Virus record (IMG/VR): IMGVR_UViG_3300044641_009589
Location: 18,895 to 82,894 of that record
Direction: 5' to 3' (one strand)
Source of the DNA: a virus
DNA length: 64,000 bases
The number at the start of each line of letters is the position of its first letter. Within the stretch, counting starts at the first letter, position 1. Positions 14,378 through 63,602 of the stretch are shown in pieces. The notes under the pieces were generated by a model that worked only from the letters and a program-made list of their open reading frames with translations, was not told the origin of the DNA and ran no database searches. The position numbers and the translations under genes are program-made.

Positions 14378-14379
14378 AA

Positions 14380-42882: not shown

Positions 42883-43380
42883 TTATTTTCTACGTAGCGC
42901 ATGAGCTATGAGATTTTTCGCCACGTCGGCCTTGTTTTCACGCTTGGTCGCTACTACAAAATTCGGAGTTTGGGACTGTTGTTTCTTTGCTGCCGCAATT
43001 GCCTGTGAAGCCTTTGCGACGATTTCTTGCTCTGTGATTACCTTTTCAATCTTGTTGCTTACTTTGCTTACAGCCTTTCTTAGCTCAGCAAACGCCTCTT
43101 CTGACATGGCCTTAAGCTCTGGAAGGTCTTCTTCTGTGTAGCTTTCACCAACCATCTCTCGCATTTCGGCAAGTCTGTCAGCGCCTACTTTGTTTTCGTA
43201 GGCTTGATCAATAAGTTGTTCTGCTTGTGTCTTGAAGTCTTCTAGTTCTTCTAGACGGGCAAGCTTAAGGTTCATGTTTTCAATATGAGTTGTAGCCAAA
43301 GCAATTGCTTGTTCGGCGTAAACTAATTGTTCTTTAAGATCAAGAACCTCGTTATCGTTTTTTGTATTAGTGTCTGACAT
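42883..43380 (-). CDS. Nested scaffold protein
   Basis: In-frame start at ATG 43380 within the protease-scaffold gene, giving 165 residues of coiled coil with a basic tail. A GAGG ribosome site lies 6 nt before it and a GTGTATAAA box 16-24 nt before it, so both promoter and ribosome-site signals are present. Nested scaffold genes of this type are known (lambda Nu3 inside C), and separate expression lets the phage make more scaffold than protease. Confidence 0.75.
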   Translation of the reverse strand: MSDTNTKNDNEVLDLKEQLVYAEQAIALATTHIENMNLKLARLEELEDFKTQAEQLIDQAYENKVGADRLAEMREMVGESYTEEDLPELKAMSEEAFAELRKAVSKVSNKIEKVITEQEIVAKASQAIAAAKKQQSQTPNFVVATKRENKADVAKNLIAHALRRK

Positions 43381-44805
43381 TTTTTCCTCTTTGTTTTTAT
43401 ACACAAAATTATTTTTATTTTCTAAACTACTGTCTTTTTTGTTTGCTTGGCTTAAAGCGTTCTCACCAGCAGATCCTGGAGCTGGTGCTGATTGCTCAGA
43501 TGATGGCCCACTTTGGTCTTGTTGTGGATTAAAAGTGCCCTCTTGAATATCGCCAGAATCGCCCTCTGGTTTGTCTATATAATAGGAAGTTTCGGATTCT
43601 TGGGAAATGCCAAGTTCTTTTAGAACAAAACGAAGCTCGCGCTCGTCCTCGCATGGCCGATACTGTGGTATTGCCATCTGCTTTTCAAGATCTGTTGGGT
43701 CAGCCATTAAAGCAGAGTAAAGAAGCGGCTTATCGCCGTGTCTGTCTTCCTGATAAAGGTGGTATCCAGTGCAGCCAAGCTTTATTTTGCCAACGCTTTC
43801 GGCTTCTTTTGCTGTAAAAAACAAGAATCCATCAGCTGGTGGCTTAAATGAAGTTGGCATTTCTCTTTTATTTTTTAAATCTTGAGGGGTGTCTGTTCTA
43901 GAAACGTTCGAAGTATCGTCTGGCATTTCTGCTGGATTTAGTATTGAACCAGGCTCCTGAACGGTTGATATTGGCGAGTTTGCATTCATAATATCCTGTG
44001 GTGTTTGGGCAAAAATTATGCTGTATATTTTGTTCTTCTTTTTATTTGCTGGCTCGTAAACGACGCCCTGTCCAGAAAAAGTTATGTTTTTTAGCCATCT
44101 TCCAATCTGATATCTTTGGCCTTTGTATTGGGTTGTGCCCTTGCCGCCAAAGGCTAGAAGGTCTTTTGACATTTTTGAGTTTGCGTCAGATCTGTCAAGG
44201 AATATTATTTCGGAATCTTCGTCTTTTCTTAGAGCGTATCCAAAATCTTCAAAGAAACATTCCATTGAAACGAAAAGCTTGCCGTCTTGAATGCCCTTTT
44301 TGATTTTTTCAGCGTATGTTGGAAAATAGCCAGACCAAATTATACCGTCTTGTTTAACGTGTATTTTCCCGCTGCAAGAGCGTGGGTTTTTGCAAGACGA
44401 TTCGTCGGCTTTAATTATGTTAACTTCTGGAACGTCTCCTTCAACAAGTGTGGTCTCAAGCATAACCCCTATGTTTTCATTTTCGGTGTCCTCGGAACCC
44501 TTGTGCATCCAATTGATTGGTTTAAATTTCGCTGTTGAGTATCTTGAGAGTATTTCTTCGGATGTAAAAACGTCGTCGTTTGCGTTCCATATGTCGCTAA
44601 CAAGTATTGATGATAGAGTTGTTACATCATCGGTTGGCTTATAGCCATTTGGTGCAATTGAGGCGATTGCGCAAGCGTTGCCCTTGCAGACATTATTAAG
44701 AGAATCTGTTTTTACAGAAATGTCTGTGACCAGAGTTGAGTCACACTTTGTTTTGTTATTAACTAAAAGTGAAGCTATTTCTTTTTCGCCTTCAAAGACT
44801 TTCAT
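42883..44805 (-). CDS. Prohead protease-scaffold fusion
   Basis: 640 residues. The first half has the protease signature: KPINWMHKGSED near residue 93 supplies the catalytic His, and KLFVSMECFF near residue 180 the likely Ser, with GVVYEPANKKKN closing the domain. A Pro/Gln/Ser-rich linker follows (about 400-470), then a coiled-coil scaffold from residue 476 (EVLDLKEQLVYAEQAIALATTHIENM) to a basic C-terminus. It should cleave itself, scaffold and other head proteins. The start follows GTGTATATT by 5 nt. A second start inside the gene can make the scaffold alone. Confidence 0.82.
   Translation of the reverse strand: MKVFEGEKEIASLLVNNKTKCDSTLVTDISVKTDSLNNVCKGNACAIASIAPNGYKPTDDVTTLSSILVSDIWNANDDVFTSEEILSRYSTAKFKPINWMHKGSEDTENENIGVMLETTLVEGDVPEVNIIKADESSCKNPRSCSGKIHVKQDGIIWSGYFPTYAEKIKKGIQDGKLFVSMECFFEDFGYALRKDEDSEIIFLDRSDANSKMSKDLLAFGGKGTTQYKGQRYQIGRWLKNITFSGQGVVYEPANKKKNKIYSIIFAQTPQDIMNANSPISTVQEPGSILNPAEMPDDTSNVSRTDTPQDLKNKREMPTSFKPPADGFLFFTAKEAESVGKIKLGCTGYHLYQEDRHGDKPLLYSALMADPTDLEKQMAIPQYRPCEDERELRFVLKELGISQESETSYYIDKPEGDSGDIQEGTFNPQQDQSGPSSEQSAPAPGSAGENALSQANKKDSSLENKNNFVYKNKEEKMSDTNTKNDNEVLDLKEQLVYAEQAIALATTHIENMNLKLARLEELEDFKTQAEQLIDQAYENKVGADRLAEMREMVGESYTEEDLPELKAMSEEAFAELRKAVSKVSNKIEKVITEQEIVAKASQAIAAAKKQQSQTPNFVVATKRENKADVAKNLIAHALRRK
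43381..43404 (-). promoter_or_regulatory. Internal GTGTAT promoter for nested scaffold
   Basis: GTG-TATAAA then AAAGAGG and ATG 43380, all inside the protease-scaffold coding region. Confidence 0.65.
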
Positions 44806-45764: not shown

Positions 45765-46064
45765 TCACGTGTTGTCTTCCTTTTTGTCTTCTAGTTCGTC
45801 TTTTACGTCACCATCATCACAAAGGAGTGGCTTTCTTATAAACTCTCTATACGCCCAAAGCAAGGCTATTAGTGCAACTGGCGCGTACCAAAAAAGCCAA
45901 CCGTAGCCAGTTGTGTCTGTAGACTGGTGCTCTATAGATTTTTTAATAGAGAGCATAACGGCACTATCTCCAGTTGTGTCTGGAATAATCTTTGGTGTTG
46001 TGTCGCAGCCAAAAAGAGAAACCGTAAAAAACAATGGCCATATTATTTTAGACATAAATTTCAT
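45765..46064 (-). CDS. Lipoprotein with internal membrane segment (u-spanin-like)
   Basis: 99 residues. Residues 1-20 (MKFMSKIIWPLFFTVSLFGC) are a signal peptide with a lipobox ending at Cys20. A 33-residue polar stretch follows, then a membrane helix at about 54-72 (YGWLFWYAPVALIALLWAY) and an acidic C-terminus. A lipid anchor plus a C-terminal membrane helix is the plan of unimolecular spanins that fuse the two membranes of Gram-negative hosts, though the span between anchors is shorter than in known examples. It overlaps a holin-like gene by 4 nt. Confidence 0.6.
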   Translation of the reverse strand: MKFMSKIIWPLFFTVSLFGCDTTPKIIPDTTGDSAVMLSIKKSIEHQSTDTTGYGWLFWYAPVALIALLWAYREFIRKPLLCDDGDVKDELEDKKEDNT

Positions 46065-46495
46065 GACTTCCTCGCTGCTGCAGATGTGCCAAAGTAAAAT
46101 CCAACTATGCTGAGTAATATTTGTCGATTTTCTGATGAGTATAAAAACCCGTTTACCTCAACAAAAAATTTCTTGCTAGTTTCTGGAATTATGCCAAAAA
46201 GACCCTCTGGATTTGTTGCGTCAACTTCAACAAATGTTGGTACTCCAAAAAATGGAAGTATAAAAGGTGCTGCTATAGAACCAAAAAGAACAGTTAAGAC
46301 AATAAGCTGTCTAACGCCCTTTCCTACGTCTATTGGAACTCTTTTAGCGGCCTGGTCTTGATTTGAGGTTGTTTGCTTGTTCGCCTCAATTACTCTTTCA
46401 AAGAGTTCTTTTTCGTCCTGCCTTTTTTCGGCTAGGTAGCGAAAAATAAACCCCAAAGTGCTACCACCAATCATTGATAAAAGCTCAATTGGCAT
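46061..46495 (-). CDS. Membrane protein, holin-like
   Basis: 144 residues. An N-terminal hydrophobic segment (PIELLSMIGGSTLGFIFRYL) is followed by an amphipathic charged helix, and two further hydrophobic segments occur at about 67-87 (LIVLTVLFGSIAAPFILPFF) and 125-140 (ILLSIVGFYFGTSAA). It resembles a three-helix membrane protein I associate with marine and freshwater phages near lysis genes. The next gene is the u-spanin-like lipoprotein. No endolysin is adjacent, so the lysis role is inferred. Confidence 0.6.
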   Translation of the reverse strand: MPIELLSMIGGSTLGFIFRYLAEKRQDEKELFERVIEANKQTTSNQDQAAKRVPIDVGKGVRQLIVLTVLFGSIAAPFILPFFGVPTFVEVDATNPEGLFGIIPETSKKFFVEVNGFLYSSENRQILLSIVGFYFGTSAAARKS

Positions 46496-50178: not shown

Positions 50179-50722
50179 TTTTAACCTCTCCTAGAATTGA
50201 TCTAAAGATGTTGCACGCGTATCTTCTTGCAAAATATTTATTGCTTAGAAAAAGCGTTTTGATTCCCCACTTATGATCAATCTCTGAAATCCTTGAAAGA
50301 ACAAAATCTGGAGGCAGCGTAAAATACATTCCTTTTTTAGGGTTTCTTCCCATGTACTTTGCGTAAGCGTCATGTAGGTCGTCTTCAACTATTATGAGTG
50401 GCTTTGCATACTTTTGTAGTCCATCTAGTTCTCTTTGAAATCTCTCCCAGTTTTTTCCTATATTTCCTAGAAGCTCCTCAACAGACGCTTTTCTTTCAAT
50501 AATTATACTGTTTTTGAACTCGGGCATATCATAGCCCTCTAGCGTATAATCACCGTACTCTAGATTTTTAACCAAAACGTTTTTTACAAAGAATTTAGAT
50601 GGCAGCTTTTCTGAAAAATCCCACGGTTTTTTTTCTTGGTTGTCAATGATAACGCTTGCGTATATAGCGCTCTCTACTGTTTTTTTGGCCTTCTTTAAGG
50701 AACCCTTGTTTCCTGAGTTCAT
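50153..50722 (-). CDS. ERCC4/XPF-type nuclease
   Basis: 189 residues with the ERCC4 motif set: VIIDNQEKKPW near residue 25, GDYTLEG near residue 58 and IIIERKASVEELLGNI near residues 72-90. Such nucleases cut branched or flap DNA. An AGAGGATAA ribosome site supports the ATG at 50722. It overlaps HNH and terL on either side, and is therefore in the packaging operon, where a branch-resolving nuclease could clear DNA before packaging. Confidence 0.85.
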   Translation of the reverse strand: MNSGNKGSLKKAKKTVESAIYASVIIDNQEKKPWDFSEKLPSKFFVKNVLVKNLEYGDYTLEGYDMPEFKNSIIIERKASVEELLGNIGKNWERFQRELDGLQKYAKPLIIVEDDLHDAYAKYMGRNPKKGMYFTLPPDFVLSRISEIDHKWGIKTLFLSNKYFARRYACNIFRSILGEVKNDTEPRVS

Positions 50723-51041
50723 TTATCCTCTGTATTTCTTCGGTGTTTTTTTGACAAATAATTTTGAAAAACTCCGATTCAAACTGCTCTTCTTTCCCTG
50801 TTACTAGCTCATGATGTTTTTTGCAAAGAGTTATTCCATTGAATTTCTCTGTTCTTAGCCTTGCCGAGTTTGCATATTTTTTTATATGATGTACCTCAAG
50901 TCCTCTTTTTTCGCAACATCCTGGAAATTGGCATGAAAACTCATCTCTTTTTAGAACCTCTTTTCTGAAACGCCAATACTCTGGTGAGTATCTACCGTCT
51001 CTACGCCTGAACTTTGGTTTCCTCAGCCTTTTCTTTGCCAC
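50643..51041 (-). CDS. HNH endonuclease
   Basis: 132 residues starting on GTG at 51041. CQFPGCCEKRGLEVHHIKKYANS near residue 38 gives the HH of the catalytic motif and a Cys pair, and GITLCKKHHEL completes the second Cys pair and the H. The HNH fold with adjacent terminase genes recurs in many phages and is thought to help cutting during packaging. A GTGTATTAA box ends 6 nt before the start. Confidence 0.9.
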   Translation of the reverse strand: MAKKRLRKPKFRRRDGRYSPEYWRFRKEVLKRDEFSCQFPGCCEKRGLEVHHIKKYANSARLRTEKFNGITLCKKHHELVTGKEEQFESEFFKIICQKNTEEIQRINELRKQGFLKEGQKNSRERYIRKRYH

Positions 51042-52023
51042 CGTTATTTAATACACTTTGGGCATAATTAATACTGTAATCGTGCTTGTACATCTCGTAA
51101 AGAAGGTCTCTCCACGTGTACTCTGGTTGCCATCCAAGCTCTCTTTTAATCTTTGATGGATCGCCACAAAGAACGTTTACCTCTAGCGGACGATTAAATG
51201 ATGGGTTTATTTTGCAAGCATCTTCTGGGTTAATATCTGCTAATCCGCAAACATAATGAAGTGCGTCTTTAATTGATATAGTTTCTCCAGTCGCAACAAC
51301 ATAATCGCTTGGCGTTTGCGCCTGAAGCATCATCCACATCGCCTTAACATAATCTTTCGCATGACCCCAGTCTCTTTTGGCGGCAAGATTTCCAAGCTCA
51401 ATTGGACCAGAAAGGCCAAGTTTATATCTAGCTATGCCGTTTGTTATCTTTCTAGTAACAAAATCAAAGCCTCTTCTTGGGCTTTCGTGATTGAATAGTA
51501 TTCCGCAGCACGCATAAATGCCATAAGACTTTCGGTAAATATCAACCATGTTGTGTGCGTACATTTTTGCTGCTGAATAAGGGCTACGTGGAACGAAAGG
51601 CGTATTTTCAGATTGATTTTCAGTTACGCCACCAAACATCTCAGATGTAGATGCTTGGTAAAATCTTGTGTGTGGCGAGTGCTTTGCTATTGCTTCTAAA
51701 ACTATTGTTACAGCAGTACCATTAACGTATGCACAAGATATTGGTTCTTTAAAGCTTTGACCAACGTGAGACATTGCTGCGAGGTTGTAATACTCGTCTG
51801 GTCTTATATGAGATATAATGCTAAATATCCCAGAAGCGTCTGTGATGTCTAGATTTATTTGATGGAAGTTTGAGTTTTTTTCTGCCTCAACCATATTAGA
51901 GGCGTTTTTCTCGGTTGAGCTTCTTCTGTATATTCCGTATACTTTGTATCCTTTGCTTAGCAAAAGCTCTGTCAAATATGAGGCGTCTTGACCTGGGCAA
52001 CCTGTTACTATTGCTGTTTTCAT
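51001..52023 (-). CDS. gmd: GDP-mannose 4,6-dehydratase
   Basis: 340 residues. The N-terminus has the NAD(P) loop (TGCPGQDASYLTELLLSKGYKVYGIYRR), then AAMSHVGQSF, the catalytic STSEMFGG and YSAAKMYAHNMV (Tyr/Lys), and a C-terminal half with IELGNLAAKRDWGHAKDYV. This enzyme converts GDP-mannose to GDP-4-keto-6-deoxymannose, precursor of fucose, rhamnose and colitose. It sits inside the terminase operon, away from the glycosyltransferases at 11.6-17.6 kb that it probably serves. Its end overlaps HNH and its start overlaps the TerS candidate. Confidence 0.93.
   Translation of the reverse strand: MKTAIVTGCPGQDASYLTELLLSKGYKVYGIYRRSSTEKNASNMVEAEKNSNFHQINLDITDASGIFSIISHIRPDEYYNLAAMSHVGQSFKEPISCAYVNGTAVTIVLEAIAKHSPHTRFYQASTSEMFGGVTENQSENTPFVPRSPYSAAKMYAHNMVDIYRKSYGIYACCGILFNHESPRRGFDFVTRKITNGIARYKLGLSGPIELGNLAAKRDWGHAKDYVKAMWMMLQAQTPSDYVVATGETISIKDALHYVCGLADINPEDACKINPSFNRPLEVNVLCGDPSKIKRELGWQPEYTWRDLLYEMYKHDYSINYAQSVLNNGGKEKAEETKVQA
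51042..51056 (-). promoter_or_regulatory. GTGTAT promoter, near-leaderless
   Basis: GTG-TATTAA, 6 nt, then GTG 51041 of the HNH gene; the box lies inside the gmd coding region. Confidence 0.5.
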
Positions 52024-52862
52024 TGTTGTTCTCTTGTTTTCTTTACTGTTTCCGAATCTAGTAATTGCGGAGCTAGTTCCCCGTCCATATATTCTATGGC
52101 GTTACGCATGCTGTCTTGTTTCTTTTCCATAGAAAGCCGAAGTAGTTCTGCCATGCGACCCTCTTTTTCCCTTGTCTGCATAGATTCAAACTTTTTACAA
52201 AGGGAGAAGAAGGTGTCCCCACCCACTTTTCCTTTTTCTTCTCTTTGGCGTCTAGTTGCATTAAGTGTTTCGTTTAGCTTTGTAGATTTTTCTAATAAAT
52301 CTTTGTACTCTTTATTTAAGTCTGTTGCCCGCATAGACGCATTGAATATTTTTTGATATAGCTCAGCCTGTTTTGGGTCTGACAGATCTAAATCCTTGAC
52401 ATCAACAATGTCATTGTTTGCCATAAGAGAGTCACGTATTCTCATGGCGTCATAATAGTCTTTTTGGTTTTTATCTATTCTTAGCTTTAAAAAAATTAGC
52501 TGCTCAACAGTGTTTTGCTCTGTGTGGGTGAGATCTTCGAGCTGAATTTTATAATTTGCCCATTCTTCGGAGAATAAAATCCAGTCTTCTTCCGGTAGTT
52601 GTTTTTTTATTCTTGACCCTCTTGGGCTTGTTTCAAATGAACGAACGTGAAAATCAAATATATCTCTGTTTTGATAATCTTTTCTTTGTTCTATCATCAC
52701 AACCGGATCTTTGGTTGTGTTTTTCATCATGCCAATACTTTTTCTGTAGCGCTCCACAGTTTTTATTGAACAGCCGATATGTTTTGCTATATCAGCGTCT
52801 GTTTTGTATTTGCAGTTATTTTCTATGTATATCTTGTCAGCTTCTTCAATTCGTTTTGCCAT
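52020..52862 (-). CDS. Terminase small subunit candidate
   Basis: 280 residues. A helix-turn-helix (TDADIAKHIGCSIKTVERYRKS) occupies residues 20-42, followed by a long helical and coiled-coil region (LEKSTKLNETLNATRRQREE). This is the layout of small terminases, which bind viral DNA and recruit the large subunit. It precedes gmd, HNH, nuclease and terL. A transcription regulator is an alternative. It overlaps the sigma gene by 17 nt. Confidence 0.65.
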   Translation of the reverse strand: MAKRIEEADKIYIENNCKYKTDADIAKHIGCSIKTVERYRKSIGMMKNTTKDPVVMIEQRKDYQNRDIFDFHVRSFETSPRGSRIKKQLPEEDWILFSEEWANYKIQLEDLTHTEQNTVEQLIFLKLRIDKNQKDYYDAMRIRDSLMANNDIVDVKDLDLSDPKQAELYQKIFNASMRATDLNKEYKDLLEKSTKLNETLNATRRQREEKGKVGGDTFFSLCKKFESMQTREKEGRMAELLRLSMEKKQDSMRNAIEYMDGELAPQLLDSETVKKTREQQ

Positions 52863-53442
52863 CTCGCCACTCCCCCATTATTTGTGTTATTTCTAAACGA
52901 AGCTTATTTTTATAATATGAATTCACTGGTTCTTCGGAAAGACAAGCCCTGTATATTTCAAGCCCCTCCTCAGATAGCCTAGCCTCAACAAAGTCTTTCA
53001 GCTCCCCAAAAACAACTGAGTTTTCTGTTTCGTTTTTACAAGTCGCTGGCTCGTATGCAACAGAGTCGTCTTTTGAGTTTCTTGCTTTTGCGCTAAGCGA
53101 AACTCTAGCCTTTTTGTGTTGTTCATTTAAACTACCACAATGGTCTCTATAAAAGTTTTTAAGTCTATTTTTGACAACCCTGTTGAGCCAACGCTCAAGC
53201 GAATTTATGTCGTCCCAACCAATGCCTTTTTCTGGTTCGTAAAACTTTAACTGCTGCATGCAAATAAGACGGGCTTGTGAAGCTATATCTTCTACTGTCA
53301 TGTAAGCAAACGTTTTGCCCATGTGGGTTTGGGCTATTTTTTCAACTAATGACAAAACCTCGTCTCTTGAGATTTTCGCCCCAGATGTTTTTGATATTTT
53401 TTTCAAAAAGATTGCGACTGCGTCTTTCTGAGGTCTTTTCAC
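52846..53442 (-). CDS. Sigma-70-like factor
   Basis: 198 residues starting on GTG at 53442. YMTVEDIASQARLICMQQLKFYEPEKGIGWDD and SLERWLNRVVKNRLKNFYRDHCGS resemble region 2 (promoter -10 melting) of sigma factors, with the YEPEKG and RVVKNRLKNFYRD signature. Region 4, if present, is much reduced. The start follows TATAAT by 5 nt with no ribosome site. A phage sigma with a -10-only mode of recognition, as in T4 gp55, would suit the GTGTAT promoters found here. Confidence 0.75.
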   Translation of the reverse strand: MKRPQKDAVAIFLKKISKTSGAKISRDEVLSLVEKIAQTHMGKTFAYMTVEDIASQARLICMQQLKFYEPEKGIGWDDINSLERWLNRVVKNRLKNFYRDHCGSLNEQHKKARVSLSAKARNSKDDSVAYEPATCKNETENSVVFGELKDFVEARLSEEGLEIYRACLSEEPVNSYYKNKLRLEITQIMGEWRDGKTN

Positions 53443-53692: not shown

Positions 53693-54151
53693 ATGGCAGA
53701 TAAACCACCAGGTGAAGTGAGTCCTGGCTCTACAGAAATTCTTTTGTACAGGGTTTCAAGAAATGAGGCATCTAGCACTATTGAGTGCTATTTAGGAGAC
53801 TCTATTTGTTGTGATGGCGAAGGAATGCTTTCTTATGCTCTTTTTTATAAACAATTTGGGTCTCCTTCTTTTACGCAGATATTAAGTTATCAAGGTGGTG
53901 TTGGCGGTGGTGGCGAAACTAATTCATTTTTGAAAAATAAGGCCTGGACTTACACTCATCTGCATGGATCATCAGAGTCTGGACAGTACTATGTTGTTGT
54001 AAGTAATGCTCTTGAAATAGGTGAAATTTACATGTCTTCTACTGTTTCTTTTCCAAAGTTTTACGGATTTGGAAAAAAGAAAACTAGAGTCTCGGCAAAT
54101 GATTCATTAAAATCCCAAGCTAAAACAAGAAATGTGATTCCAAAGTTCTAA
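53693..54151 (+). CDS. Uncharacterised beta-rich protein
   Basis: 152 residues; YYVVVSNALEIGEIYMSSTVSF resembles an Ig-like strand. The start comes 1 nt after the stop of the HTH gene. The C-terminal 25 residues are basic. No family is recognised. Expression with the HTH gene and the following ORF is likely. Confidence 0.6.
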   Translation: MADKPPGEVSPGSTEILLYRVSRNEASSTIECYLGDSICCDGEGMLSYALFYKQFGSPSFTQILSYQGGVGGGGETNSFLKNKAWTYTHLHGSSESGQYYVVVSNALEIGEIYMSSTVSFPKFYGFGKKKTRVSANDSLKSQAKTRNVIPKF

Positions 54152-54152
54152 A

Positions 54153-54527
54153 ATGCCTATTACTTTATCAAACAGAACCGCAACGACAGTAACACTAACA
54201 GCCTCTGGCTTTAGTGGGCTAGGCACGGGGGCGTACATAAGAACTGGTGCTTTAGATGTTTTGACGGAACAGACAAACCCGTCTTTGCTTGCAAGCTCAT
54301 GGACTGTAATATTAAGCGTCTCCTCTTCTGGTGGAAATTATATTTTTGCGACTTACACAACAAGTAAGGGCGGTGTTGTAAGCATTTTGGAAACTGAGTC
54401 GTTTAGTGTAAGTGCTTATTTAGAAGCATCAGCAAAGCAAAAAAGATTAACTATTAATAGTCTTTCAAGATCTGGATCTTCTCTTAAGTTAAGATCTAGT
54501 TTAAGAAAGAACTTCCCAAGTATATAG
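54153..54527 (+). CDS. Uncharacterised Thr/Ser-rich beta protein
   Basis: 124 residues beginning MPITLSNRTATTVTLTASGF; strand-like and Ser/Thr-rich, with a basic C-terminus similar in feel to the gene before it. It begins 1 nt after the previous stop. It may be a small structural domain. Function unknown. Confidence 0.55.
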   Translation: MPITLSNRTATTVTLTASGFSGLGTGAYIRTGALDVLTEQTNPSLLASSWTVILSVSSSGGNYIFATYTTSKGGVVSILETESFSVSAYLEASAKQKRLTINSLSRSGSSLKLRSSLRKNFPSI

Positions 54528-54533
54528 TTCTTG

Positions 54534-54547
54534 GTGTATAAGATTAC
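54534..54547 (+). promoter_or_regulatory. GTGTAT promoter, leaderless spacing
   Basis: GTG-TATAAG, 5 nt (attac), then GTG 54548 of the SleB-like gene. Confidence 0.65.
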
Positions 54548-55639
54548 GTGCGACCAATTGATAAATTAAAATTTATTCTAAAGGCTTATGATCAAGGTGG
54601 GCAGCTAGGATCTGAGCCGGCAAGAAACGAAGCCGAAGGACCGGGCTTTACTTGCTATATGTTTGCTTGGTTTACTGGAGCTGATTACTCCAATATATAT
54701 ATGGTAACTAGAGTTGTGACTGGACCTGATGGTATGCCAGTAAACGTAACAACCCCTGTCCACGCTTACGACATGGACGGTAACAACCAAATCAACTATC
54801 CCACAACGCCACCTCCAATAGGTGTCCCTTCCACTGGTAAATGGAGGCTTATAAGACTAGGAAACAACACGCCAATTGATACTGTTGTCGGTGAGCCTGG
54901 AAGAGAGATTATTGTTCCGCCACAAGGCGTAAGTACACCAGCTTGCCCGCCGCCCACAACGCTGAACTCTCCACAAATACCACCTCTGCTCGATCAAGAT
55001 GTAAAACCAGCGCCAAGACCAAAGCCAGAAGCAATAACAGAGGCCTACATTATAGACGCTACTTTATGCGGAGAGGCATCAACGGAAGGGTTGGTTGGCC
55101 AGTCTTTAGTTTGGGCAATAGCTGACAATAGAGCTAGATGGAGAGCGTCTAGAACACCTCTTAATATAACTTTGCCAGCTGGAATACCTAGCACGCCGAT
55201 CGTTAAAGAGTTTTTAAAATTAAATGCTTTTAGCTGTTGGAACAACACTTACCCAAGTAAAAATCAGGCTATCAGAGATAGGGCTGGATCTAATCCGCGA
55301 TCAAGCGAAAGCGCCTTTAGAAAAAGAGCAGAATATTTAAAATCTCTTTGTGGCGCGGGCGGCGCACATGAAGACGCTAGCGCGGCACAGGGAAGAACTG
55401 CTCTTGTTGGTGCTGGGATGACACAAGAAGAAGCGGCAAATACATTTCTGTATCTAAATCCTAACGCCTCTGGAAGCAAAGACAACTGGGTTGTAGACAC
55501 GGTAAGATCAGCAAAAAACCACCCTGGAAAAGTTAAATGGGTAGACACAATTCGTGATTCTAAAGGAAAGGGCCACACTGCCACTCTCGTTAGAATAGGC
55601 AGACACGTATTTGTGTCAGGCCCTGGTTTAAATCCATAA
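54548..55639 (+). CDS. SleB-like cell-wall hydrolase with N-terminal leader
   Basis: 363 residues starting on GTG at 54548, 5 nt after GTGTATAAG. Residues 1-18 (MRPIDKLKFILKAYDQGG) are a leader of the shared type. A Pro-rich linker (about 90-160) leads to a C-terminal domain with YIIDATLCGEASTEGLVGQSLVWAIADNR and AFSCWNNTYP, then a terminal IGRHVFVSGPG, matching the SleB/hydrolase_2 family, which cuts peptidoglycan. The Glu in CGEA is the likely catalytic residue. With the leader it is more likely a virion-carried wall hydrolase for entry than a cytoplasmic endolysin. Confidence 0.8.
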   Translation: MRPIDKLKFILKAYDQGGQLGSEPARNEAEGPGFTCYMFAWFTGADYSNIYMVTRVVTGPDGMPVNVTTPVHAYDMDGNNQINYPTTPPPIGVPSTGKWRLIRLGNNTPIDTVVGEPGREIIVPPQGVSTPACPPPTTLNSPQIPPLLDQDVKPAPRPKPEAITEAYIIDATLCGEASTEGLVGQSLVWAIADNRARWRASRTPLNITLPAGIPSTPIVKEFLKLNAFSCWNNTYPSKNQAIRDRAGSNPRSSESAFRKRAEYLKSLCGAGGAHEDASAAQGRTALVGAGMTQEEAANTFLYLNPNASGSKDNWVVDTVRSAKNHPGKVKWVDTIRDSKGKGHTATLVRIGRHVFVSGPGLNP

Positions 55640-55705: not shown

Positions 55706-56008
55706 TCAGGCCGGTGTGGAATAGATTTCGTCAAGAACCCTAGTGTAGCAATATTGCGTATGTGGAATAGGTGTGCTAGGATCATGACAGCAACGCGATA
55801 GAATGCTTGGGTCTTCTTCCATCGCTTGGAGCGCCCAGTGACAATTCCAACCATAGTGACCAAACCTGTTTGTTGGGACTGGTGCTGGTTTATATTTTTT
55901 TCTTGGGGTTGATTCAAGTGGCATATTAGGTTCATCAAATCGCGTAAATTGTTGATTAGCCGCTTGAATTACCTGGGTTAGTTTTTGAATTGATTTTTCT
56001 AATGACAT
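55706..56008 (-). CDS. Leader-bearing small protein with RFDEP box
   Basis: 100 residues. Leader MSLEKSIQKLTQVIQAANQQ, then RFDEPNMPLESTP, almost the same box as in the protein at 8741. A basic linker is followed by a domain with NCHWALQAM and CCHDPSTPIPHTQYCY, Cys/His rich. A GTGTATAAT box and AGGAAAG ribosome site precede it, directly after the terminator of the gene upstream. Function unknown; virion cargo inferred. Confidence 0.72.
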   Translation of the reverse strand: MSLEKSIQKLTQVIQAANQQFTRFDEPNMPLESTPRKKYKPAPVPTNRFGHYGWNCHWALQAMEEDPSILSRCCHDPSTPIPHTQYCYTRVLDEIYSTPA

Positions 56009-56085: not shown

Positions 56086-56409
56086 TTACATTTGGCCTGG
56101 TGTTTGTTGGCCCGGCCCGCCTTGACATGGCGCGTTAAATGGGACAGTTGTTTCAAACCCTTCCTGAAACATACATGGGCCTTCAATGGTTTCTACTACG
56201 CAATTGTTATCGCCCTTCATCTTTGATCTGCAAACACAAATAGCTTTATTATCTGGCCAAGTACCTACATATTCTGTTTTGCAGAGAACTCTCTTCGGTG
56301 GAAGACCAACTGGGCCTGATGGCCTTGACGGATCAACTACTGGACCCATTGGTTGTCTAGCTGCAGTAATCGCGCTTGTGAGTTTTTGTATTGCTTTTTC
56401 TAGTGACAT
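56086..56409 (-). CDS. Leader-bearing Cys-rich protein
   Basis: 107 residues from the ATG at 56409. Its leader (MSLEKAIQKLTSAITAARQP) differs at few positions from that of the protein at 56008, so the two are duplicates at this end. The remainder is unlike it: Pro-rich, then a domain with six cysteines (KTEYVG...CVCRSKMKGDNNC) ending in GPGQQTPGQM. A GTGTATAAA box and AAGGAA ribosome site precede it, and a terminator follows. Confidence 0.72.
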   Translation of the reverse strand: MSLEKAIQKLTSAITAARQPMGPVVDPSRPSGPVGLPPKRVLCKTEYVGTWPDNKAICVCRSKMKGDNNCVVETIEGPCMFQEGFETTVPFNAPCQGGPGQQTPGQM

Positions 56410-56436: not shown

Positions 56437-56880
56437 TTATCTAAATGGATCAAGATTCGGTGACCAAACCATCCTTTCAATGTTTGGTCTGTCTGGAATA
56501 ATAAGCCCTGGTTTTACGTAAGTTGGCTTTATTGATGGCTTAGTTGTTTTTGTGTTTAATTTAATTATACCGCGTCTAGTTAGCTCCATTCGTAAAGCTT
56601 TATAAACACCTGAGTACATTCCCGTCCCTGGGTTTCCGCACTTTTGATTGACAAGGTCAGAAAAAGATCGGATTATTTGTTCCGCGCACTCAGAGGAAAG
56701 ATGTTGGGTCTTTACCTTTATTGCTATGTCTGATGCTATTTTAGAAATATCAGTCGGTTTCCATTTGCACGGCAGTGCGCGCTTTGAGGGGCTTATTTTT
56801 AAATACGAGCACGGAACAGCGTTTTGCTGATCAACAGCAAGAGAAAGTCTTTTAATTGCGATAATTATTTTTTCTTGCAC
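56437..56880 (-). CDS. Leader-bearing protein, helical
   Basis: 147 residues starting on GTG at 56880. Leader MQEKIIIAIKRLSLAVDQQN, then CSYLKISPSKRALPCKW and a helical part (ISKIASDIAIKVKTQHLSSECAEQIIRSF), and a Pro/Lys-rich C-terminus. It overlaps the previous gene by 16 nt. No family is recognised; late virion cargo inferred from the leader and neighbours. Confidence 0.68.
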   Translation of the reverse strand: MQEKIIIAIKRLSLAVDQQNAVPCSYLKISPSKRALPCKWKPTDISKIASDIAIKVKTQHLSSECAEQIIRSFSDLVNQKCGNPGTGMYSGVYKALRMELTRRGIIKLNTKTTKPSIKPTYVKPGLIIPDRPNIERMVWSPNLDPFR

Positions 56881-57494
56881 GGCTTATTTCTCGCTATTCT
56901 TGCAGCCTTTTCTAAATAGCTATTTCTTATGTCTTCTTTCTTTTTATCAAATTTCTTTTTTCTGTCTGTAACTGTTGCTCCGTATGGGCTGCACTGAGCA
57001 TTGTAAAGCTCTGTCTCTCGCTCCACCTCAAGAGAATACATTATTTCATTATGCTTTTTTAGAATCTTGCATTTCTCTTCGTTCTGTTTAGCGTCTAGCC
57101 TGTCTCTATTAGTTGGCGCTTTGTCTCCAGGCTCCATAGAGTTAGGGGTCAAAACTGTTGGCATAACCGCGCTTCTTCCACGTCCTGGTCTCATTGATCC
57201 GCCGTCTTGGTCTGGGCCAACCGCACCAGCCTGTGGAAGTTTGTGTCTTTCGCCTTCTGGCAAGAAAGACGTCTCTCCTTCTGGAGCACAGCTTTCCCAT
57301 TTCCAGCTAAATGGCGTCATTCCGTTTTCGGGGTGCGTGTTATCTATCCAGGTTATACGATCAGCAGCTCGTGTACCATCACTTTTACAGCTGTTTGCGC
57401 TGCTGATTTTTTTGTCGTATTTTGATCTTATTGTTTGACACTCTGTGGGAGCTGCACCCAAAACGTAAATTAATTTTGAAATTGAGTCATTCAT
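56865..57494 (-). CDS. Leader-bearing Cys/Lys-rich protein
   Basis: 209 residues from the ATG at 57494, which overlaps the preceding stop as ATGA; the longer frame adds 14 Ser/Thr-rich residues and is not favoured. Leader MNDSISKLIYVLGAAPTEC. Acidic middle with a Gly/Pro-rich stretch, then a Lys/Glu-rich helical C-terminus (EVERETELYNAQC) ending in CKKK. Function unknown. Confidence 0.65.
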   Translation of the reverse strand: MNDSISKLIYVLGAAPTECQTIRSKYDKKISSANSCKSDGTRAADRITWIDNTHPENGMTPFSWKWESCAPEGETSFLPEGERHKLPQAGAVGPDQDGGSMRPGRGRSAVMPTVLTPNSMEPGDKAPTNRDRLDAKQNEEKCKILKKHNEIMYSLEVERETELYNAQCSPYGATVTDRKKKFDKKKEDIRNSYLEKAARIARNKPCKKK

Positions 57495-58174
57495 TGTGGA
57501 TTTACTCCTGCTGGAGCTGTTTGTGTTGGTTGGCATGGTTTACATGGCGCGCCAAGCGCAGAGCGAACACCTTCTGTTATTGAATTAATTTGAGCTTTAA
57601 AAAATTCTTTCTTTTGCTTATTTGTTGGGTTTCTACCAATACCGCCAGCAGAAGAGTACGGCTCGCAGCCTTTTCTTGCCAATTCTATAGCTTCTAGAAT
57701 TGCTGCAGCGTATAACATATCCCATTTTCCGCGTATGTACTTGCCTGATCTCGGGTCTTTATATCCCCGTAGAAGCGCGCACTTTCTTAGTGTTTTTATA
57801 CACGCAAGAAGTTTTTCCTTTTTTGCTAAATTTGGGTCGTTTTGAACGCTTGGAGCGCCCAATTGAGGCTCCTGCATTGCAGCAGCTGGAGGATATTGAT
57901 TTGTTGGAACATACGGGGCGTCGTTAACAGAAAACTTAAAAATTTCTGGTGGAAGCGGATTTCCGTTTTGGCTGTTCCATGTTTCAAATTCCCAAACCTG
58001 TCCAAGCGTGCCGTATGTAAGTCCGTCAATCTGCTGTCGTCCAGCTTCGTAGGCTGTGTTTATTGCCCCACGAAACCGCTCCCACCTTGCTGTTATTTCT
58101 TTGCATCTTGGGGGTGTAGACGGTGGTGCTGCGCTTACGGCCAAATGTTTTGCTATGACTGTTTTCAGGTTCAT
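57491..58174 (-). CDS. Leader-bearing protein, Pro-rich middle
   Basis: 227 residues. Leader MNLKTVIAKHLAVSAAPPST, an alpha/beta segment (WERFRGAINTAYEAGRQQIDG), a Pro/Gln/Asn-rich middle and a second helical part (AKKEKLLACIKTLRKCALL), with CKPCQP near the end. A GTGTATTAA box ends 7 nt before the start. It begins a minus-strand run of five leader-bearing genes (58174 to 55706). Confidence 0.68.
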   Translation of the reverse strand: MNLKTVIAKHLAVSAAPPSTPPRCKEITARWERFRGAINTAYEAGRQQIDGLTYGTLGQVWEFETWNSQNGNPLPPEIFKFSVNDAPYVPTNQYPPAAAMQEPQLGAPSVQNDPNLAKKEKLLACIKTLRKCALLRGYKDPRSGKYIRGKWDMLYAAAILEAIELARKGCEPYSSAGGIGRNPTNKQKKEFFKAQINSITEGVRSALGAPCKPCQPTQTAPAGVNPQ

Positions 58175-58224: not shown

Positions 58225-59055
58225 ATGGACGCGTACCGTTTGTTTGTGGCTGCTATTAATAAACAGGTAGAGGTTTTAGGTCTAGATGACCAGCCTAAAA
58301 AAACTGATATTGAATCATGTCCAGAAATATCAATTGCAAAAACAATAGAAGATCTGGTTTCTAGTGTTCGATCTTGTTTTACTGCAGGTGGTGGCGTTAT
58401 AAGCTCCGCTATTGTCGTTGGAATGATCGTTACTAAACTGGGTGAGCTTGCAATAGGAATGATAAGATCTGGATCAGTATCAAACTGGAAAGATTTTTTT
58501 AGTATGCTGTGTTCTTTTCTAGAAACAATAATAAAAACACTCCGTGATATTGGGGTGATGTCTCAATTTTTGGCAAATCCAGCGCTAGTTCAAATACTGG
58601 TTAGTCAAATTGTTGGCAAGTTGGGCTTTCTTCTTGGCGAAACTTTCTACGGTATGAACAGTGCTGTTTTTGGAAGTCAAAACTTTAAGAATTTTTTACG
58701 CGATCTTTTGGTTGGTGGACCAAACAACATTTCTGCTTTTTGCAGAACGGTAGCCCAAATGACGGAGGAAGAGGTTGGTGAATTAATTAATACGATTATG
58801 GCGAATTTTGAATCTTTTTCAGCTGCTCTAAATTCCGCTTACAGTGTTCTGTCTCGCGGATTGTCCCAAATTGATTTGCGACCTGCTTTGGTGCTAGCAA
58901 TAGTTGCTGCTCTTGGAATAACTCTTGCGAGCGGGGGAACTAGCACACCGATAACAGCGCCAGCGCTTGCGGTATTGGTTGCTGTTTTTATAATGTTAGG
59001 TATGGAGCCTCCTTCAGAAGAAGAGCTTTCGGGGTACGGAATAACCATTGGATAA
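58225..59055 (+). CDS. Leader-bearing membrane protein, paralogue 3
   Basis: 276 residues. Leader MDAYRLFVAAINKQVEVLG, a helical middle, and a C-terminal hydrophobic pair (PALVLAIVAALGITLASGG... ALAVLVAVFIMLG) with an acidic tail. It follows GTGTATCTT by 5 nt without a ribosome site. Architecture and length match the genes at 73 and 1035, although sequence identity beyond the pattern is low. Divergent from the leader run at 58174. Confidence 0.78.
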   Translation: MDAYRLFVAAINKQVEVLGLDDQPKKTDIESCPEISIAKTIEDLVSSVRSCFTAGGGVISSAIVVGMIVTKLGELAIGMIRSGSVSNWKDFFSMLCSFLETIIKTLRDIGVMSQFLANPALVQILVSQIVGKLGFLLGETFYGMNSAVFGSQNFKNFLRDLLVGGPNNISAFCRTVAQMTEEEVGELINTIMANFESFSAALNSAYSVLSRGLSQIDLRPALVLAIVAALGITLASGGTSTPITAPALAVLVAVFIMLGMEPPSEEELSGYGITIG

Positions 59056-59058
59056 AAA

Positions 59059-60084
59059 ATGAAAAAAGAACTAAATTACAGATTTATATCCGCTTTAAAC
59101 AAACAAGCTGAGGTTTACGAGCAAGCGGATCCATCTGCAAAAGAGTCTGTTGTTGTAACAGAAAAAGACTGTGTGCGCAGAATTGAATCAAGCACAACAT
59201 GGCAGCAGGCCCTTACTTCTTTTATGGAATGCGTGCCAACAATAAATGACCAGACTAAAGCTAGCGCAGAAATACCTAAAGACATATTTAGATTTATGAG
59301 CGCTCTTCAGTCGCTTCAAAGAGTAATAACTAGATCTGCTATTGGTTGGATTTCAGATGCGGTCGCATTAATAACAGCTGGACAGAGGGTTGTTGATAAC
59401 AGTGGCCCCTGGTCTATGTTTATAAACGTATTATGTAGCGACGCCCTTCAAAGTTTTTTCCGTGAGGTTGATGAACTCCTTAGAAGGTATAGATGGCTTA
59501 GTAATTTTTGGGCGTCAAATATGGAGAGCTTTATAAATCATTTTGGTACTATTTTGGCTAATGCTCTTTCTGAAGCCCTTTCCTCTTTGGGTATTGCGCC
59601 AGTTAACAACATTAGTTTTGAGGAGCAGTTAGTTCGTTTTATGAAAATACGACTTGGTGGTTTTAGTGATGCTGCGCTAGTTGACTTGTGTGCAACGTGG
59701 GGTGAGCTGAATCAATTACTTAACACCATAAACGCGACACCAGAACAGCGAGAAAAGGCTTGTGAGGAACTGTGGGATCGGCTTTCAACCTACGTGCTAG
59801 GAATTGGCGGCATTGTGATAGACAGCGTAGGTGGGGCAAGAAACGCCATTTCATCCTTTGTGTCTTCTGTAAGCGCTTTCATAAGAGAAAATGAAGAAAC
59901 AATAAAAATAACTGTTCTTATAAGCTTGGCCATAGCTGCAGCGGTTGCGGCAGCTGCTTCTGGTGGAACAGCAGCGCCAGCTCTAGCTGTTGCTGTTTTG
60001 GCTCTAGCGGGAGCGCTTGGCATACAGACTGAGGGCTGGACACGTGAATCAATAGAAAGGGCAATACAGAACGGCTCTGTTTAA
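59059..60084 (+). CDS. Leader-bearing membrane protein, paralogue 4
   Basis: 341 residues, the largest of the four. Leader MKKELNYRFISALNKQAEVY, a long helical middle, and a C-terminal hydrophobic hairpin (VLISLAIAAAVAAAASGG... ALAVAVLALAGALG) ending in a polar tail. It starts 3 nt after the previous gene. Repeated Ala/Gly in the hairpin is consistent with tight helix packing and possible pore formation, which is inferred. Confidence 0.78.
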   Translation: MKKELNYRFISALNKQAEVYEQADPSAKESVVVTEKDCVRRIESSTTWQQALTSFMECVPTINDQTKASAEIPKDIFRFMSALQSLQRVITRSAIGWISDAVALITAGQRVVDNSGPWSMFINVLCSDALQSFFREVDELLRRYRWLSNFWASNMESFINHFGTILANALSEALSSLGIAPVNNISFEEQLVRFMKIRLGGFSDAALVDLCATWGELNQLLNTINATPEQREKACEELWDRLSTYVLGIGGIVIDSVGGARNAISSFVSSVSAFIRENEETIKITVLISLAIAAAVAAAASGGTAAPALAVAVLALAGALGIQTEGWTRESIERAIQNGSV

Positions 60085-60104: not shown

Positions 60105-60752
60105 ATGGAAAACTTCTCGCAAGGTGCAGAGTGGACAACGCGTTATAAAAATGATCTCCCTGACAGTGCTTTTCTTTATATTGAGGCTGGCGGCAAAAGG
60201 GACTCCGAGGGGAAAATCAAGCCTCGTTCGCTGCGACACTTTCCGTACAAGGACGCGGACGGCAAAGTTGACCGCGCGCACATTCTTAATGCGATTTCGC
60301 GAATCCCACAGGCTAAATTCCTGTCTCAGGCTCAAAAGGACAGACTGCAAGCACGGGCAAGGAAAATATATCTTAAGTTTGTAAAGTACAACAGCAAAAA
60401 GGCAAACTCGTTTATTGATATTTTAAACAAGCTGTCCGCCGCCGTTGGCGCTTCTGAAAGAATGCAGCTTCGAATGGATGGGCCAGCAGGAAAAATGGAC
60501 TCGTATGCCGTAGAGGTTTACGATAACATGATTATGGTGTACTCTGACAACGAGTGTGTCATGAAAAAGATAGGTAAAAGAGGAGACTTGAAGCCGGATT
60601 TTTTACGTTATTTAAATGCCCAAGTGGCGGACCTCCGAAAAAACAACCCAATTTGGGGCGAGTGGGAAATTAAAACAGCATTACAGTCTTTGGCACACCA
60701 GTGGATTGAGCGTTATGCACGAGACTGCTTTGGTGGTACTGTATTAGCATAA
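60105..60752 (+). CDS. Phage protein with PRSLRHFPYKDADGKVD domain and internal leader-like helix
   Basis: 215 residues. Residues about 17-90 carry FLYIEAGGKRDSEGK and PRSLRHFPYKDADGKVDRAHILNAISRIPQA, a module known in many phage proteins, often next to head-maturation genes (I associate it with DUF6582). At about residue 102 FIDILNKLSAAVGASERMQ resembles the shared leader but lies inside the chain, after the domain. The C-terminal part is helical with aromatic residues. The first 11 coding nt are identical to those of the gene at 73. The start follows GTGTATTTA by 5 nt. Confidence 0.72.
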   Translation: MENFSQGAEWTTRYKNDLPDSAFLYIEAGGKRDSEGKIKPRSLRHFPYKDADGKVDRAHILNAISRIPQAKFLSQAQKDRLQARARKIYLKFVKYNSKKANSFIDILNKLSAAVGASERMQLRMDGPAGKMDSYAVEVYDNMIMVYSDNECVMKKIGKRGDLKPDFLRYLNAQVADLRKNNPIWGEWEIKTALQSLAHQWIERYARDCFGGTVLA

Positions 60753-60768: not shown

Positions 60769-61290
60769 GTGGAAACCTGGAAGCCCCTAGCTAGAAACCC
60801 TAACTACGAAGTCAGCACCGAAGGTCGCGTCCGTGAAAAGGCGCGGCCTGTTTTTAACCGTGGCAGAATTCACTCAAAGCCCCCTAGAACTATTGAACCT
60901 TTTATCGACACAGAAGGCTACGCTTTTGTTGTTTTGAGAAAGCCCATGGGAACAGGAGCAGAAAAGATATTTGTGCACAGACTGGTTATGGAGGTTTACC
61001 AGGGAGAGTGTCCAGACGAAATGAGTGTTGACCACATTGACAGAGTACGAACAAATAATGCACTCTCCAATTTACGGTACGCAACAAAGGCCGAGCAGAC
61101 AGAAAACAGAGATTTAAGCAGAATATCGGGGGAAAACTCGCGTTTCAGCAAATTAACCCAGGCAGACGTGGACGAAATACGAAAAATGATAGAGATTGGA
61201 TTCCTGGACAGTGTAATTGCCGACAGATTTGGTGTTGGCGCAGGCGCAATACGTAACATACGAAACGGAAAAAGCTGGGCAAAGTCCTGA
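60769..61290 (+). CDS. HNH homing endonuclease (NUMOD4-HNH)
   Basis: 173 residues from GTG at 60769, 5 nt after TATAAT. WKPLARNPNYEVSTEGRVREKARP is a NUMOD4 opening, DHIDRVRTNNALSNLRYAT is an HNH core, and the C-terminal LTQADVDEIRKMIEIGFLDSVIADRFGVGAGAIRNIRNGKSW is a NUMOD/IENR-like DNA-binding segment. Such enzymes cut at specific sites and spread between genomes. It is the last clear gene of the AT-leaning region. Confidence 0.9.
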   Translation: METWKPLARNPNYEVSTEGRVREKARPVFNRGRIHSKPPRTIEPFIDTEGYAFVVLRKPMGTGAEKIFVHRLVMEVYQGECPDEMSVDHIDRVRTNNALSNLRYATKAEQTENRDLSRISGENSRFSKLTQADVDEIRKMIEIGFLDSVIADRFGVGAGAIRNIRNGKSWAKS

Positions 61291-61463
61291 TTTATAGCGG
61301 GCGCCCAGCCTTTTCAAAAACGATTCGCTGGTGTAATAAGTCCTCATATTGGTTTTTTCGCCTGTGAAATTGGGTGAAACCCCGCGCCCTCCGGAGCACC
61401 CATTGGTGTCGGGCGCGTGCCCGACAATCACCCCCCAGTGCGCTAACGCGCAGGAGTTATGTC
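61291..61463. other. Composition switch, no gene
   Basis: The segment starts AT-leaning, with text like the phage, and becomes strongly GC-rich from about 61375. It holds the hairpin at 61407 and no supported gene. Confidence 0.6.
61407..61426. other. Perfect hairpin upstream of GC-rich gene
   Basis: TGTCGGGC, loop GCGT, GCCCGACA. No T tract, so not a standard terminator. It is about 40 nt upstream of ATG 61464 and could be a leader structure of that gene. Confidence 0.6.
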
Positions 61464-61940
61464 ATGTCCACCAAGTCTTCCGCCCGCACCGCCCCCGCCT
61501 CGCCCGCTGCCGTCCTGCGGCTCGCGGCCTCGACCGTCACCACCGAGGTGGCCGATTGGAACGCCGACCGCGTGCTGGCCGCGCCGGCCACGTTCGGCAA
61601 GGCCGTCCTCGGCGACCTGACCGACCGCCGCAAGGCCCGCCGCCTGCCGGCCCAGGCCATGCGCGACGCGACCAAGGCCGCCGGCGTGTACGCCCGCACC
61701 CCGTGCCCGACGACCCAGGCCCCGTGGCTGCAGGCCCAGGCTCGGACCGCCGAGGCCATGGCATGGTTCGCGGGCGCGGTCGACCTCCTCGCGGCCATCC
61801 CGAATCCGCATGGGGTTACCATCGGCCGCATCCCGGGCGTGGCCGCCGACCGGGCCTTGACCGTCCGCGACCTGATCGACGGCCTGACGCTGCCCCCCTC
61901 GAAGTCCGAGGTGGCCGCGTGGTTGGCCTCCGCCGAGTGA
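61464..61940 (+). CDS. GC-rich gene of unknown function
   Basis: 158 residues from ATG 61464 with an AGGAG ribosome site 8 nt upstream. Third codon positions are almost all G or C, unlike every gene before 61.3 kb, so the gene belongs to a GC-rich genome. The sequence is Ala/Arg/Asp-rich, with RRLPAQAMRDATKAAGVYAR and WLASAE at the end, but no family is recognised. A terminator-like hairpin follows at 61955. Confidence 0.65.
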   Translation: MSTKSSARTAPASPAAVLRLAASTVTTEVADWNADRVLAAPATFGKAVLGDLTDRRKARRLPAQAMRDATKAAGVYARTPCPTTQAPWLQAQARTAEAMAWFAGAVDLLAAIPNPHGVTIGRIPGVAADRALTVRDLIDGLTLPPSKSEVAAWLASAE

Positions 61941-63581: not shown

Positions 63582-63582
63582 A

Positions 63583-63600
63583 GTCCTGAAAGGAGGACTC
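63583..63600 (+). promoter_or_regulatory. Hairpin overlapping a ribosome site
   Basis: AGTCCT, loop GAAAGG, AGGACT. The stem and loop contain the AAAGGAGG ribosome site of the ORF at 63603, so folding could limit its translation. Confidence 0.4.
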
Positions 63601-63602
63601 AC

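What the first reader, a model, noticed from the sequence alone, without database searches (positions are those of the whole stretch)
54548..55639. SleB-like hydrolase with a virion leader
SleB-type enzymes are mainly known from spore cortex lysis. Here the domain follows a leader and a Pro-rich linker and has its own leaderless promoter. It could be packaged in the head or tail to open the wall during entry.
Basis: partly seen in the sequence, partly recalled or inferred. Interest (0 to 1): 0.5.

Follow-up and report, generated by a model that had tools for sequence, protein, structure and literature searches.

The report
Tagged phage wall-cutting enzyme
A little-known group of phages makes a bacterial wall-cutting enzyme that starts with a short tag also seen on other, unrelated proteins of the same phages, and related phages put the same kind of tag on a quite different wall-cutter, which suggests, but does not prove, that the tag loads the enzyme into the virus particle for use at entry.

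Summary
The gene is real. P0001 alone hits no Pfam family, but five of seven distant relatives hit Hydrolase_2 (E 1.3e-5 to 1.4e-4, just under cut-off), and an 11-member profile hits only the two solved SleB proteins in the PDB. Glu176, presumed catalytic, is invariant. Relatives come in three architectures, all with the leader. Five related records carry, at the same place, leader, Pro-rich linker and T4-type lysozyme. Of 23 records 13 have SleB, 5 the lysozyme, none both. A leader pattern from SleB recurs at the start of 8 of 148 other families versus 5 of 1037 internal chunks; broader tests are weaker. GTGTAT-N8-start precedes this gene and nine others (10 found, 0.65 expected), consistent with leaderless mRNA. 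Packaging in the virion is inferred, not shown. Against it: no other wall enzyme was found with the families tried, and holin- and spanin-like genes exist, so this may be, or also be, the endolysin. New variant of a known kind.

The parts
54534..54539 (+). GTGTAT promoter-like element, 8 nt before the start codon
   Evidence: GTGTAT-N8-RTG: 10 in window vs 0.65 expected; exact GTGTAT 7-11 nt before the start in 12 of 16 wall-enzyme genes compared
54548..54592 (+). N-terminal leader (residues 1-15, MRPIDKLKFILKAYD)
   Evidence: Same kind of leader on all 20 SleB-family ORFs listed; pattern in 8 of 148 other families' N-termini vs 5 of 1037 internal chunks
54638..54922 (+). Conserved middle domain (residues ~31-125), function unknown
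   Evidence: Residues 1-132 have 81% mean column identity in 4 sequences; no Pfam match; its profile finds only the long relatives
54917..55030 (+). Pro-rich linker (residues 124-161, 13 Pro of 38)
55031..55636 (+). SleB-like (Hydrolase_2-related) catalytic domain
   Evidence: Model of residues 161-363: pLDDT 90.8, pTM 0.86; BFVD matches mostly SleB-type, best E 4.3e-3; five of seven distant relatives hit PF07486 below cut-off; profile hits only 4f55/4fet in PDB
55073..55075 (+). Glu176, presumed catalytic Glu of the GE motif
   Evidence: Invariant in 11 sequences; aligns with the GE motif of solved SleB; that this particular Glu is SleB's catalytic one is recalled
55706..56008 (-). Small leader-bearing protein (MSLEKSIQKLTQVIQAA)
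56086..56409 (-). Leader-bearing protein (MSLEKAIQKLTSAITAA), start taken at an ATG inside the listed ORF
56437..56880 (-). Leader-bearing protein (MQEKIIIAIKRLSLAV)
   Evidence: matches the looser pattern
56865..57494 (-). Leader-bearing protein (MNDSISKLIYVLGAA), start taken at an ATG inside the listed ORF
58225..59055 (+). Leader-like N-terminus (by eye) plus predicted membrane segments; GTGTAT-N8-ATG
59059..60084 (+). Leader-like N-terminus (by eye) plus C-terminal membrane segments
46061..46495 (-). Holin-like small membrane protein (by eye)
   Evidence: one predicted membrane segment; no Pfam match over cut-off
45765..46064 (-). Small protein with a lipobox-like start, spanin-like (by eye)
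   Evidence: sequence of its relatives; no Pfam match over cut-off; the hydropathy scan did not flag a membrane segment in it
42883..44805 (-). Candidate prohead protease fused to scaffold, between portal and major capsid genes
   Evidence: invariant H101 and S180 among others in 18 sequences; no Pfam match over cut-off, PDB profile matches only coiled coils; the protease reading is by recall of motif shape

Best explanation
The gene encodes a modular wall enzyme. A ~15-residue N-terminal helix acts as a packaging tag shared by a set of phage proteins; behind it sit a middle domain, a flexible Pro-rich linker and a SleB-type catalytic domain that cuts peptidoglycan glycan strands. The tag is thought to bring the enzyme, with other tagged proteins (several with membrane segments), into the maturing head, as capsid targeting sequences do in T4 and P1, so that it is released at infection to open the wall for DNA entry. 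Shown by sequence: the modules, the shared leader pattern, the swap of SleB for a lysozyme behind the same leader type, and the promoter-like element. Inferred: packaging, release at entry, any cleavage of the leader, leaderless mRNA and enzyme activity. The same protein may also serve as endolysin.
For: Leader present on all 20 SleB-family ORFs found, also on the short ones that have no middle domain or linker. Pattern built from SleB leaders: 8 of 148 other families' N-termini vs 5 of 1037 internal chunks, Fisher p=4e-5; looser pattern 12 of 148 vs 17 of 1037, p=7e-5. Sibling phages carry leader + Pro-rich linker + T4-type lysozyme at the same place; of 23 records 13 have SleB, 5 the lysozyme, 0 both. 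Of the 7 window/L008 proteins flagged with a membrane segment, 4 are leader-like (the 13 leader candidates were picked by eye). Precedents: T4 internal proteins have in common only a capsid targeting sequence (PMC3012670, passages); 30 N-terminal residues of P1 DarB direct a reporter into the capsid (PMC9024508, passages).
Against: No protein-level data. Unsupervised motif searches hardly separate N-termini from controls (score 314.7 vs 286.0-300.0; 246.8 vs 219.7-243.1). A weight matrix from outgroup leaders, some of them SleB relatives, put 4 of 88 window/L008 N-termini above the 99th percentile of internal chunks, rank test p=0.03. The pattern was fixed after I had seen other leaders. No other wall enzyme was found with the families tried, which points to a lysis role. 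No sequence link to a known capsid targeting sequence was tested. No family match supports the prohead protease.
Confidence: 0.5

Rival explanations
1. It is the phage endolysin only: made late, held in the cytoplasm, let out by the holin to lyse the cell. The leader then serves something else, such as membrane or partner binding.
For: No GH24, Amidase_2, M15_4, SLT or M15_3 match in G000, and none besides the leader-lysozyme in the three 122-125 kb siblings. Pfam scans of most G000 ORFs of 80 aa or more show no other wall enzyme over cut-off. Holin-like and spanin-like genes at 46061-46495 and 45765-46064 (by eye). No record has both SleB and lysozyme. A SleB-like homologue in Cronobacter phage CR3 is said to be implicated in lysis (PMC7344957, passages).
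Against: The leader pattern is on proteins with no recognised wall-enzyme domain. The gene is ~8 kb from the holin-like gene. G000 is a fragment; an endolysin of an unlisted family could exist; the GH19 control rang nowhere and the GH108 control only weakly.
Confidence: 0.3
2. It is a tail or baseplate enzyme, and the leader docks it to the tail.
For: The phage has a long tail by its 1903-aa tape measure; tail-borne wall enzymes are common (recalled).
Against: Coded apart from the tail genes, on the other strand; leader-like N-termini are also on proteins with C-terminal membrane segments, unusual for tail parts.
Confidence: 0.08
3. The leader is not a signal but chance amphipathic N-termini or a by-product of leaderless translation.
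For: Unsupervised motif tests are weak; many genes have the GTGTAT-N8 start.
Against: Leaders also occur on genes whose ATG lies 18 and 21 nt after GTGTAT (56086-56409 and 55706-56008). The leader is kept across relatives whose domains share only 26-31% identity with P0001.
Confidence: 0.1

Closest known systems
SleB/CwlJ-type enzymes (Pfam PF07486 Hydrolase_2; PDB 4f55, 4fet)
   Same: GE, NR and NP motifs; profile match E 1.6e-4 and 3.4e-4; five of seven distant relatives hit PF07486
   Different: P0001 itself has no PF07486 match; relatives stay under the cut-off; leader and linker in place of SleB's own N-terminal parts (SleB layout recalled)
Phage SleB-like hydrolases: Vequintavirinae (CB7_83), PhiW-14, Goslar
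   Same: SleB-like domain in phages of Gram-negative bacteria; BFVD matches include PhiW-14 and Goslar proteins (E 0.17 and 0.23)
   Different: CB7_83 is reported with a signal peptide and a holin candidate overlapping it (PMC7344957, passages); here a leader without a membrane segment, shared with other phage proteins
T4 internal proteins and P1 DarB with capsid targeting sequences
   Same: Short N-terminal tag on otherwise unrelated cargo; the P1 tag is longer than 9 and shorter than 30 residues (PMC9024508, passages)
   Different: No sequence link tested; cargo here includes a wall enzyme; packaging untested
T4 lysozyme (GH24, PF00959)
   Same: Cargo behind the same leader type in sibling phages (best E 8.7e-10 to T4 lysozyme chains)
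   Different: Replaces, and is unrelated to, the SleB domain of the window phage

Membership tests
SleB/Hydrolase_2 (PF07486) | Curated Pfam score (27 bits) | tested here: not met
   P0001: no match; five of seven distant relatives 22.9-26.1 bits, two none; L005 domain 13.4 bits. Hence called SleB-like, not a formal member
SleB/Hydrolase_2 (PF07486) | Conserved Glu in the GE motif | tested here: met
   Invariant in 11 of 11; aligns with the GE motif of 4f55 and 4fet
SleB/Hydrolase_2 (PF07486) | SleB fold | tested here: inconclusive
   BFVD named top matches mostly SleB-type, best E 4.3e-3, TM-scores under 0.4 to the query; PDB searches did not list SleB
SleB/Hydrolase_2 (PF07486) | Lytic transglycosylase activity | not testable with these tools
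   needs an assay
Capsid-targeted internal protein (T4/P1 type) | Short N-terminal tag shared with unrelated cargo | tested here: met
   weaker
Capsid-targeted internal protein (T4/P1 type) | Presence in the head | not testable with these tools
   needs proteomics
Capsid-targeted internal protein (T4/P1 type) | Prohead protease encoded; tag cleaved | tested here: inconclusive
   Candidate gene 42883-44805 with invariant His and Ser, no family match; cleavage not testable
Canonical holin-dependent endolysin | Only wall enzyme of the genome | tested here: inconclusive
   None other over cut-off in G000 (a fragment) or siblings with the families tried
Canonical holin-dependent endolysin | No hydrophobic membrane segment | tested here: met
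   None in P0001 by a hydropathy scan; no signal-peptide predictor was run
Canonical holin-dependent endolysin | Releases progeny at lysis | not testable with these tools
   needs a lysis test

The most novel reading that the evidence does not exclude
One N-terminal tag defines a whole ejected protein kit in a new long-tailed phage group, made largely from leaderless mRNAs; the wall-cutting module behind the tag is a swappable cassette (SleB or T4-type lysozyme), and the same single enzyme serves both at entry, from the virion, and at exit, as endolysin.
Probability: 0.2. Interest if true: 0.75.

Novelty: new variant of a known kind. Interest (0 to 1): 0.47.

Why it matters
If the leader is a packaging tag, it gives a sequence handle to predict which proteins a phage injects, in a group with no close relative in the isolate collection searched, and it offers a natural case of one tag type carrying two unrelated wall enzymes. 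It would also make it possible to test whether one enzyme can serve both entry and exit.

Tried and rejected
Direct matches of P0001: PHROGs gave one hit of unknown function at E 0.077; PDB by sequence one chance hit at 0.72; INPHARED phages none; Pfam none. The L005 domain gave four chance phage hits at E 2-3. PF07486 searched on G000 in six frames: no match. NCBIfam and PADLOC were not searched (the one NCBIfam call, 29, failed on input and was not repeated). A profile of 4 close relatives gave one unrelated PDB hit at E 0.63; the 11-member profile was needed. The full-length model was poor (pLDDT 43.3) and its PDB search meaningless. PDB searches with the good domain model gave no hit at E <= 0.001 (best 0.39) and partial PAS- and roadblock-like alignments with Z at most 4.1; SleB was not listed.

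Pattern-based scans of viral contigs with P0001, A1, A3 and the L005 protein found only the same six records or three of them; the distant relatives came only through the terminase. Genome-contig scans with A3 and A4 found no relative, so no host was identified. Terminase matches to isolates: 37 records, 23.9-26.5% identity over at most 60% in the 15 listed. Rfam: nothing over threshold.

The unsupervised leader searches were too weak to use alone; that was swamped by the initiator Met. Hydrophobic moment: 10 of 13 leader candidates lie at or above the 88th percentile of internal 13-mers, but I took the best of three registers for the leaders and not for the background, and 57491-58174 is at the 30th. 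PF01374 hit (E 0.008, 16.2 bits vs 27) on 34974-35351 judged chance. GH108 hit in G013 (E 0.017, 12.3 bits, stops inside) judged chance. PF20573 hit (E 0.027) on 6901-7539 below cut-off.

Limits of the wall-enzyme search: not scanned with Pfam were 9415-10959, 11010-11438, 45471-45719, 50643-51041, 51001-52023, 52020-52862, 52846-53442 and ORFs under 80 aa. One search matched 39 families and showed 25; 18 of its 34 members were scanned again.

Rows dropped: 19 of 149 families (ORFs I judged spurious) were dropped by hand before the motif search. Of 31 terminase loci, 22 records plus G000 were used; L023, L024, L025, L035, L039, L041, L042, L043, L052 were left out as short or close to others. 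Window ORFs starting beyond 61300 were left out of the family set. In one search a family counts as a hit if at least half its members match, while the internal control uses one member per family.

Full report
What is there. The window is bases 18895-82894 of an 82,894-base virus record. The ORF 54548-55639 (+) is intact, 363 aa, GTG start. It reads as a leader (residues 1-15), a conserved domain (~31-125), a Pro-rich linker (124-161, 13 Pro of 38) and a C-terminal domain (~162-363). Six IMG/VR loci encode relatives at 49-100% identity, L001 being the window sequence itself over 19,453 bases.

The enzyme. P0001 alone has no Pfam match. A scan with the terminase gave 31 loci; a profile of the C-terminal domain then found distant relatives in 11 further loci. 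Seven of these were scanned: five hit Hydrolase_2 (PF07486) at E 1.3e-5 to 1.4e-4, 22.9-26.1 bits against a cut-off of 27; the two of 240-242 aa (L037, L038) hit nothing. A profile of 11 domains has only two PDB matches up to E 10, both solved SleB, 4f55 (1.6e-4) and 4fet (3.4e-4), aligned over the GE...NR motif and, weakly, the NP motif. Glu176 is invariant in all 11. The domain model has pLDDT 90.8 and pTM 0.86. BFVD's named top matches are mostly SleB-type or cell-wall enzymes, but the best E is 4.3e-3 and none reaches 0.001; PDB structure searches did not list SleB. That SleB's catalytic Glu is essential to its lytic transglycosylase activity is from PMC12331253 (passages); a SleB-like T6SS effector loses toxicity when its matching Glu is changed (PMC11148199, passages).

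The leader. All 20 SleB-family ORFs found begin with the same kind of short leader, whether the protein is long (338-363 aa), mid (240-242) or short (197-198, without middle domain and linker); several of the 20 are the same or nearly the same sequence. A pattern taken from SleB leaders, [IL].KL..[AIV], occurs in residues 2-30 of 8 of 148 other families and in 5 of 1037 internal chunks (p=4e-5); a looser one in 12 of 148 and 17 of 1037 (p=7e-5). I had seen other leaders before fixing the pattern, so this is not blind. Broader tests are weaker: a matrix from outgroup leaders put 4 of 88 N-termini above the 99th percentile, rank p=0.03, and unsupervised motifs scored only slightly above controls. 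Thirteen leader-like window proteins, picked by eye, include 4 of the 7 proteins flagged with a membrane segment.

The swap. In L028, L029, L030, L045 and L031 the place of the SleB gene holds an ORF on the opposite strand with leader, Pro-rich linker and a Phage_lysozyme domain (PF00959: 23.3 and 23.5 bits, over the 22.3 cut-off, in L030 and L045; 20.8, 21.1 and 18.5 in L029, L028 and L031). Their profile matches T4 lysozyme chains at up to 8.7e-10. Across 23 records 13 have SleB, 5 the lysozyme, none both and 5 neither (fragments of 20-47 kb); some records are near-copies of one another. The three records of 122-125 kb have only the lysozyme.

The promoter. GTGTAT-N8-RTG occurs 10 times in the window, each directly before a listed ORF; 0.65 expected, 0 of 100 shuffles reaching 10. 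Among 16 wall-enzyme genes compared, 12 have exact GTGTAT 7-11 nt before the start (for four lysozyme genes a downstream ATG is taken as start), two have GGGTAT at 8 nt, one has GTGTAT at 14 nt and one (L038) has none; several are near-identical. The same element also precedes genes with starts 17-24 nt on. Leaderless or near-leaderless mRNA is therefore likely, but inferred; phage transcripts are said to be often leaderless anyway (PMC5312081, passages).

How it most likely works. One tag on varied cargo is the pattern of T4 internal proteins (PMC3012670, passages) and of P1 DarB's targeting sequence (PMC9024508, passages). A gene between portal and capsid genes, 42883-44805, has invariant His101 and Ser180 in 18 sequences and looks, by recall, like a prohead protease fused to scaffold; no family match supports this. 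I infer that the enzyme is packaged with other tagged proteins and acts at entry. The strongest rival is that it is the endolysin: no other wall enzyme over cut-off was found in G000 or siblings with the families tried, holin- and spanin-like genes are present (by eye), and a SleB-like homologue in Cronobacter phage CR3 is said to be implicated in lysis (PMC7344957, passages). Both may be true.

Novelty. SleB-like enzymes in phages and packaging tags in phages are each known. The combination, with the swap behind the tag, was not seen in the listings of searches (titles and starts of abstracts, with passages of a few of these papers). I rate it a new variant of a known kind.

Noticed in passing
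window 53693-54151 and 54153-54527 (+); L004, L005, L039, L034 counterparts: Small proteins upstream of the SleB gene share a C-terminal tail such as RKKFPTI: pattern [FIYV]P[TSNK][ILFV] at the very end in 4 of 149 families, 0.08 expected. May be a C-terminal targeting or attachment signal.
   Followed up: partly
window 52846-53442 (-): A 198-aa protein conserved across the group looks by eye like a sigma-factor region 2 and might read the GTGTAT promoters; a PDB profile search gave no sigma match.
   Followed up: partly
window 43380-43404 (-), inside 42883-44805: An internal GTGTAT with an ATG 18 nt on could give a separate scaffold product of about 165 aa from the candidate protease-scaffold gene.
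   Followed up: no
window 61200-64000: GC jumps from 0.45-0.47 to 0.57-0.76 with no convincing genes; the same stretch is in contig IMGVR_UViG_3300042507_007364 at 100% identity; no plasmid match. Possible assembly artefact or foreign DNA.
   Followed up: partly
window 60105-60752 (+): A protein with a leader-like stretch (NSFIDILNKLSAAVGASE) at an internal position, after a ~100-aa domain that its relative in L004 shares.
   Followed up: no
window 8079-8741 (-) and 55706-56008 (-): Two otherwise different leader-bearing proteins share a similar stretch just after the leader (TRFDEP...TP), as if recombined behind the tag.
   Followed up: no
window 11604-17040 and 51001-52023: Glycosyltransferases (Pfam tally; which ORFs is by eye) and a nucleotide-sugar epimerase in a phage genome, suggesting glycan-modifying functions.
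   Followed up: no
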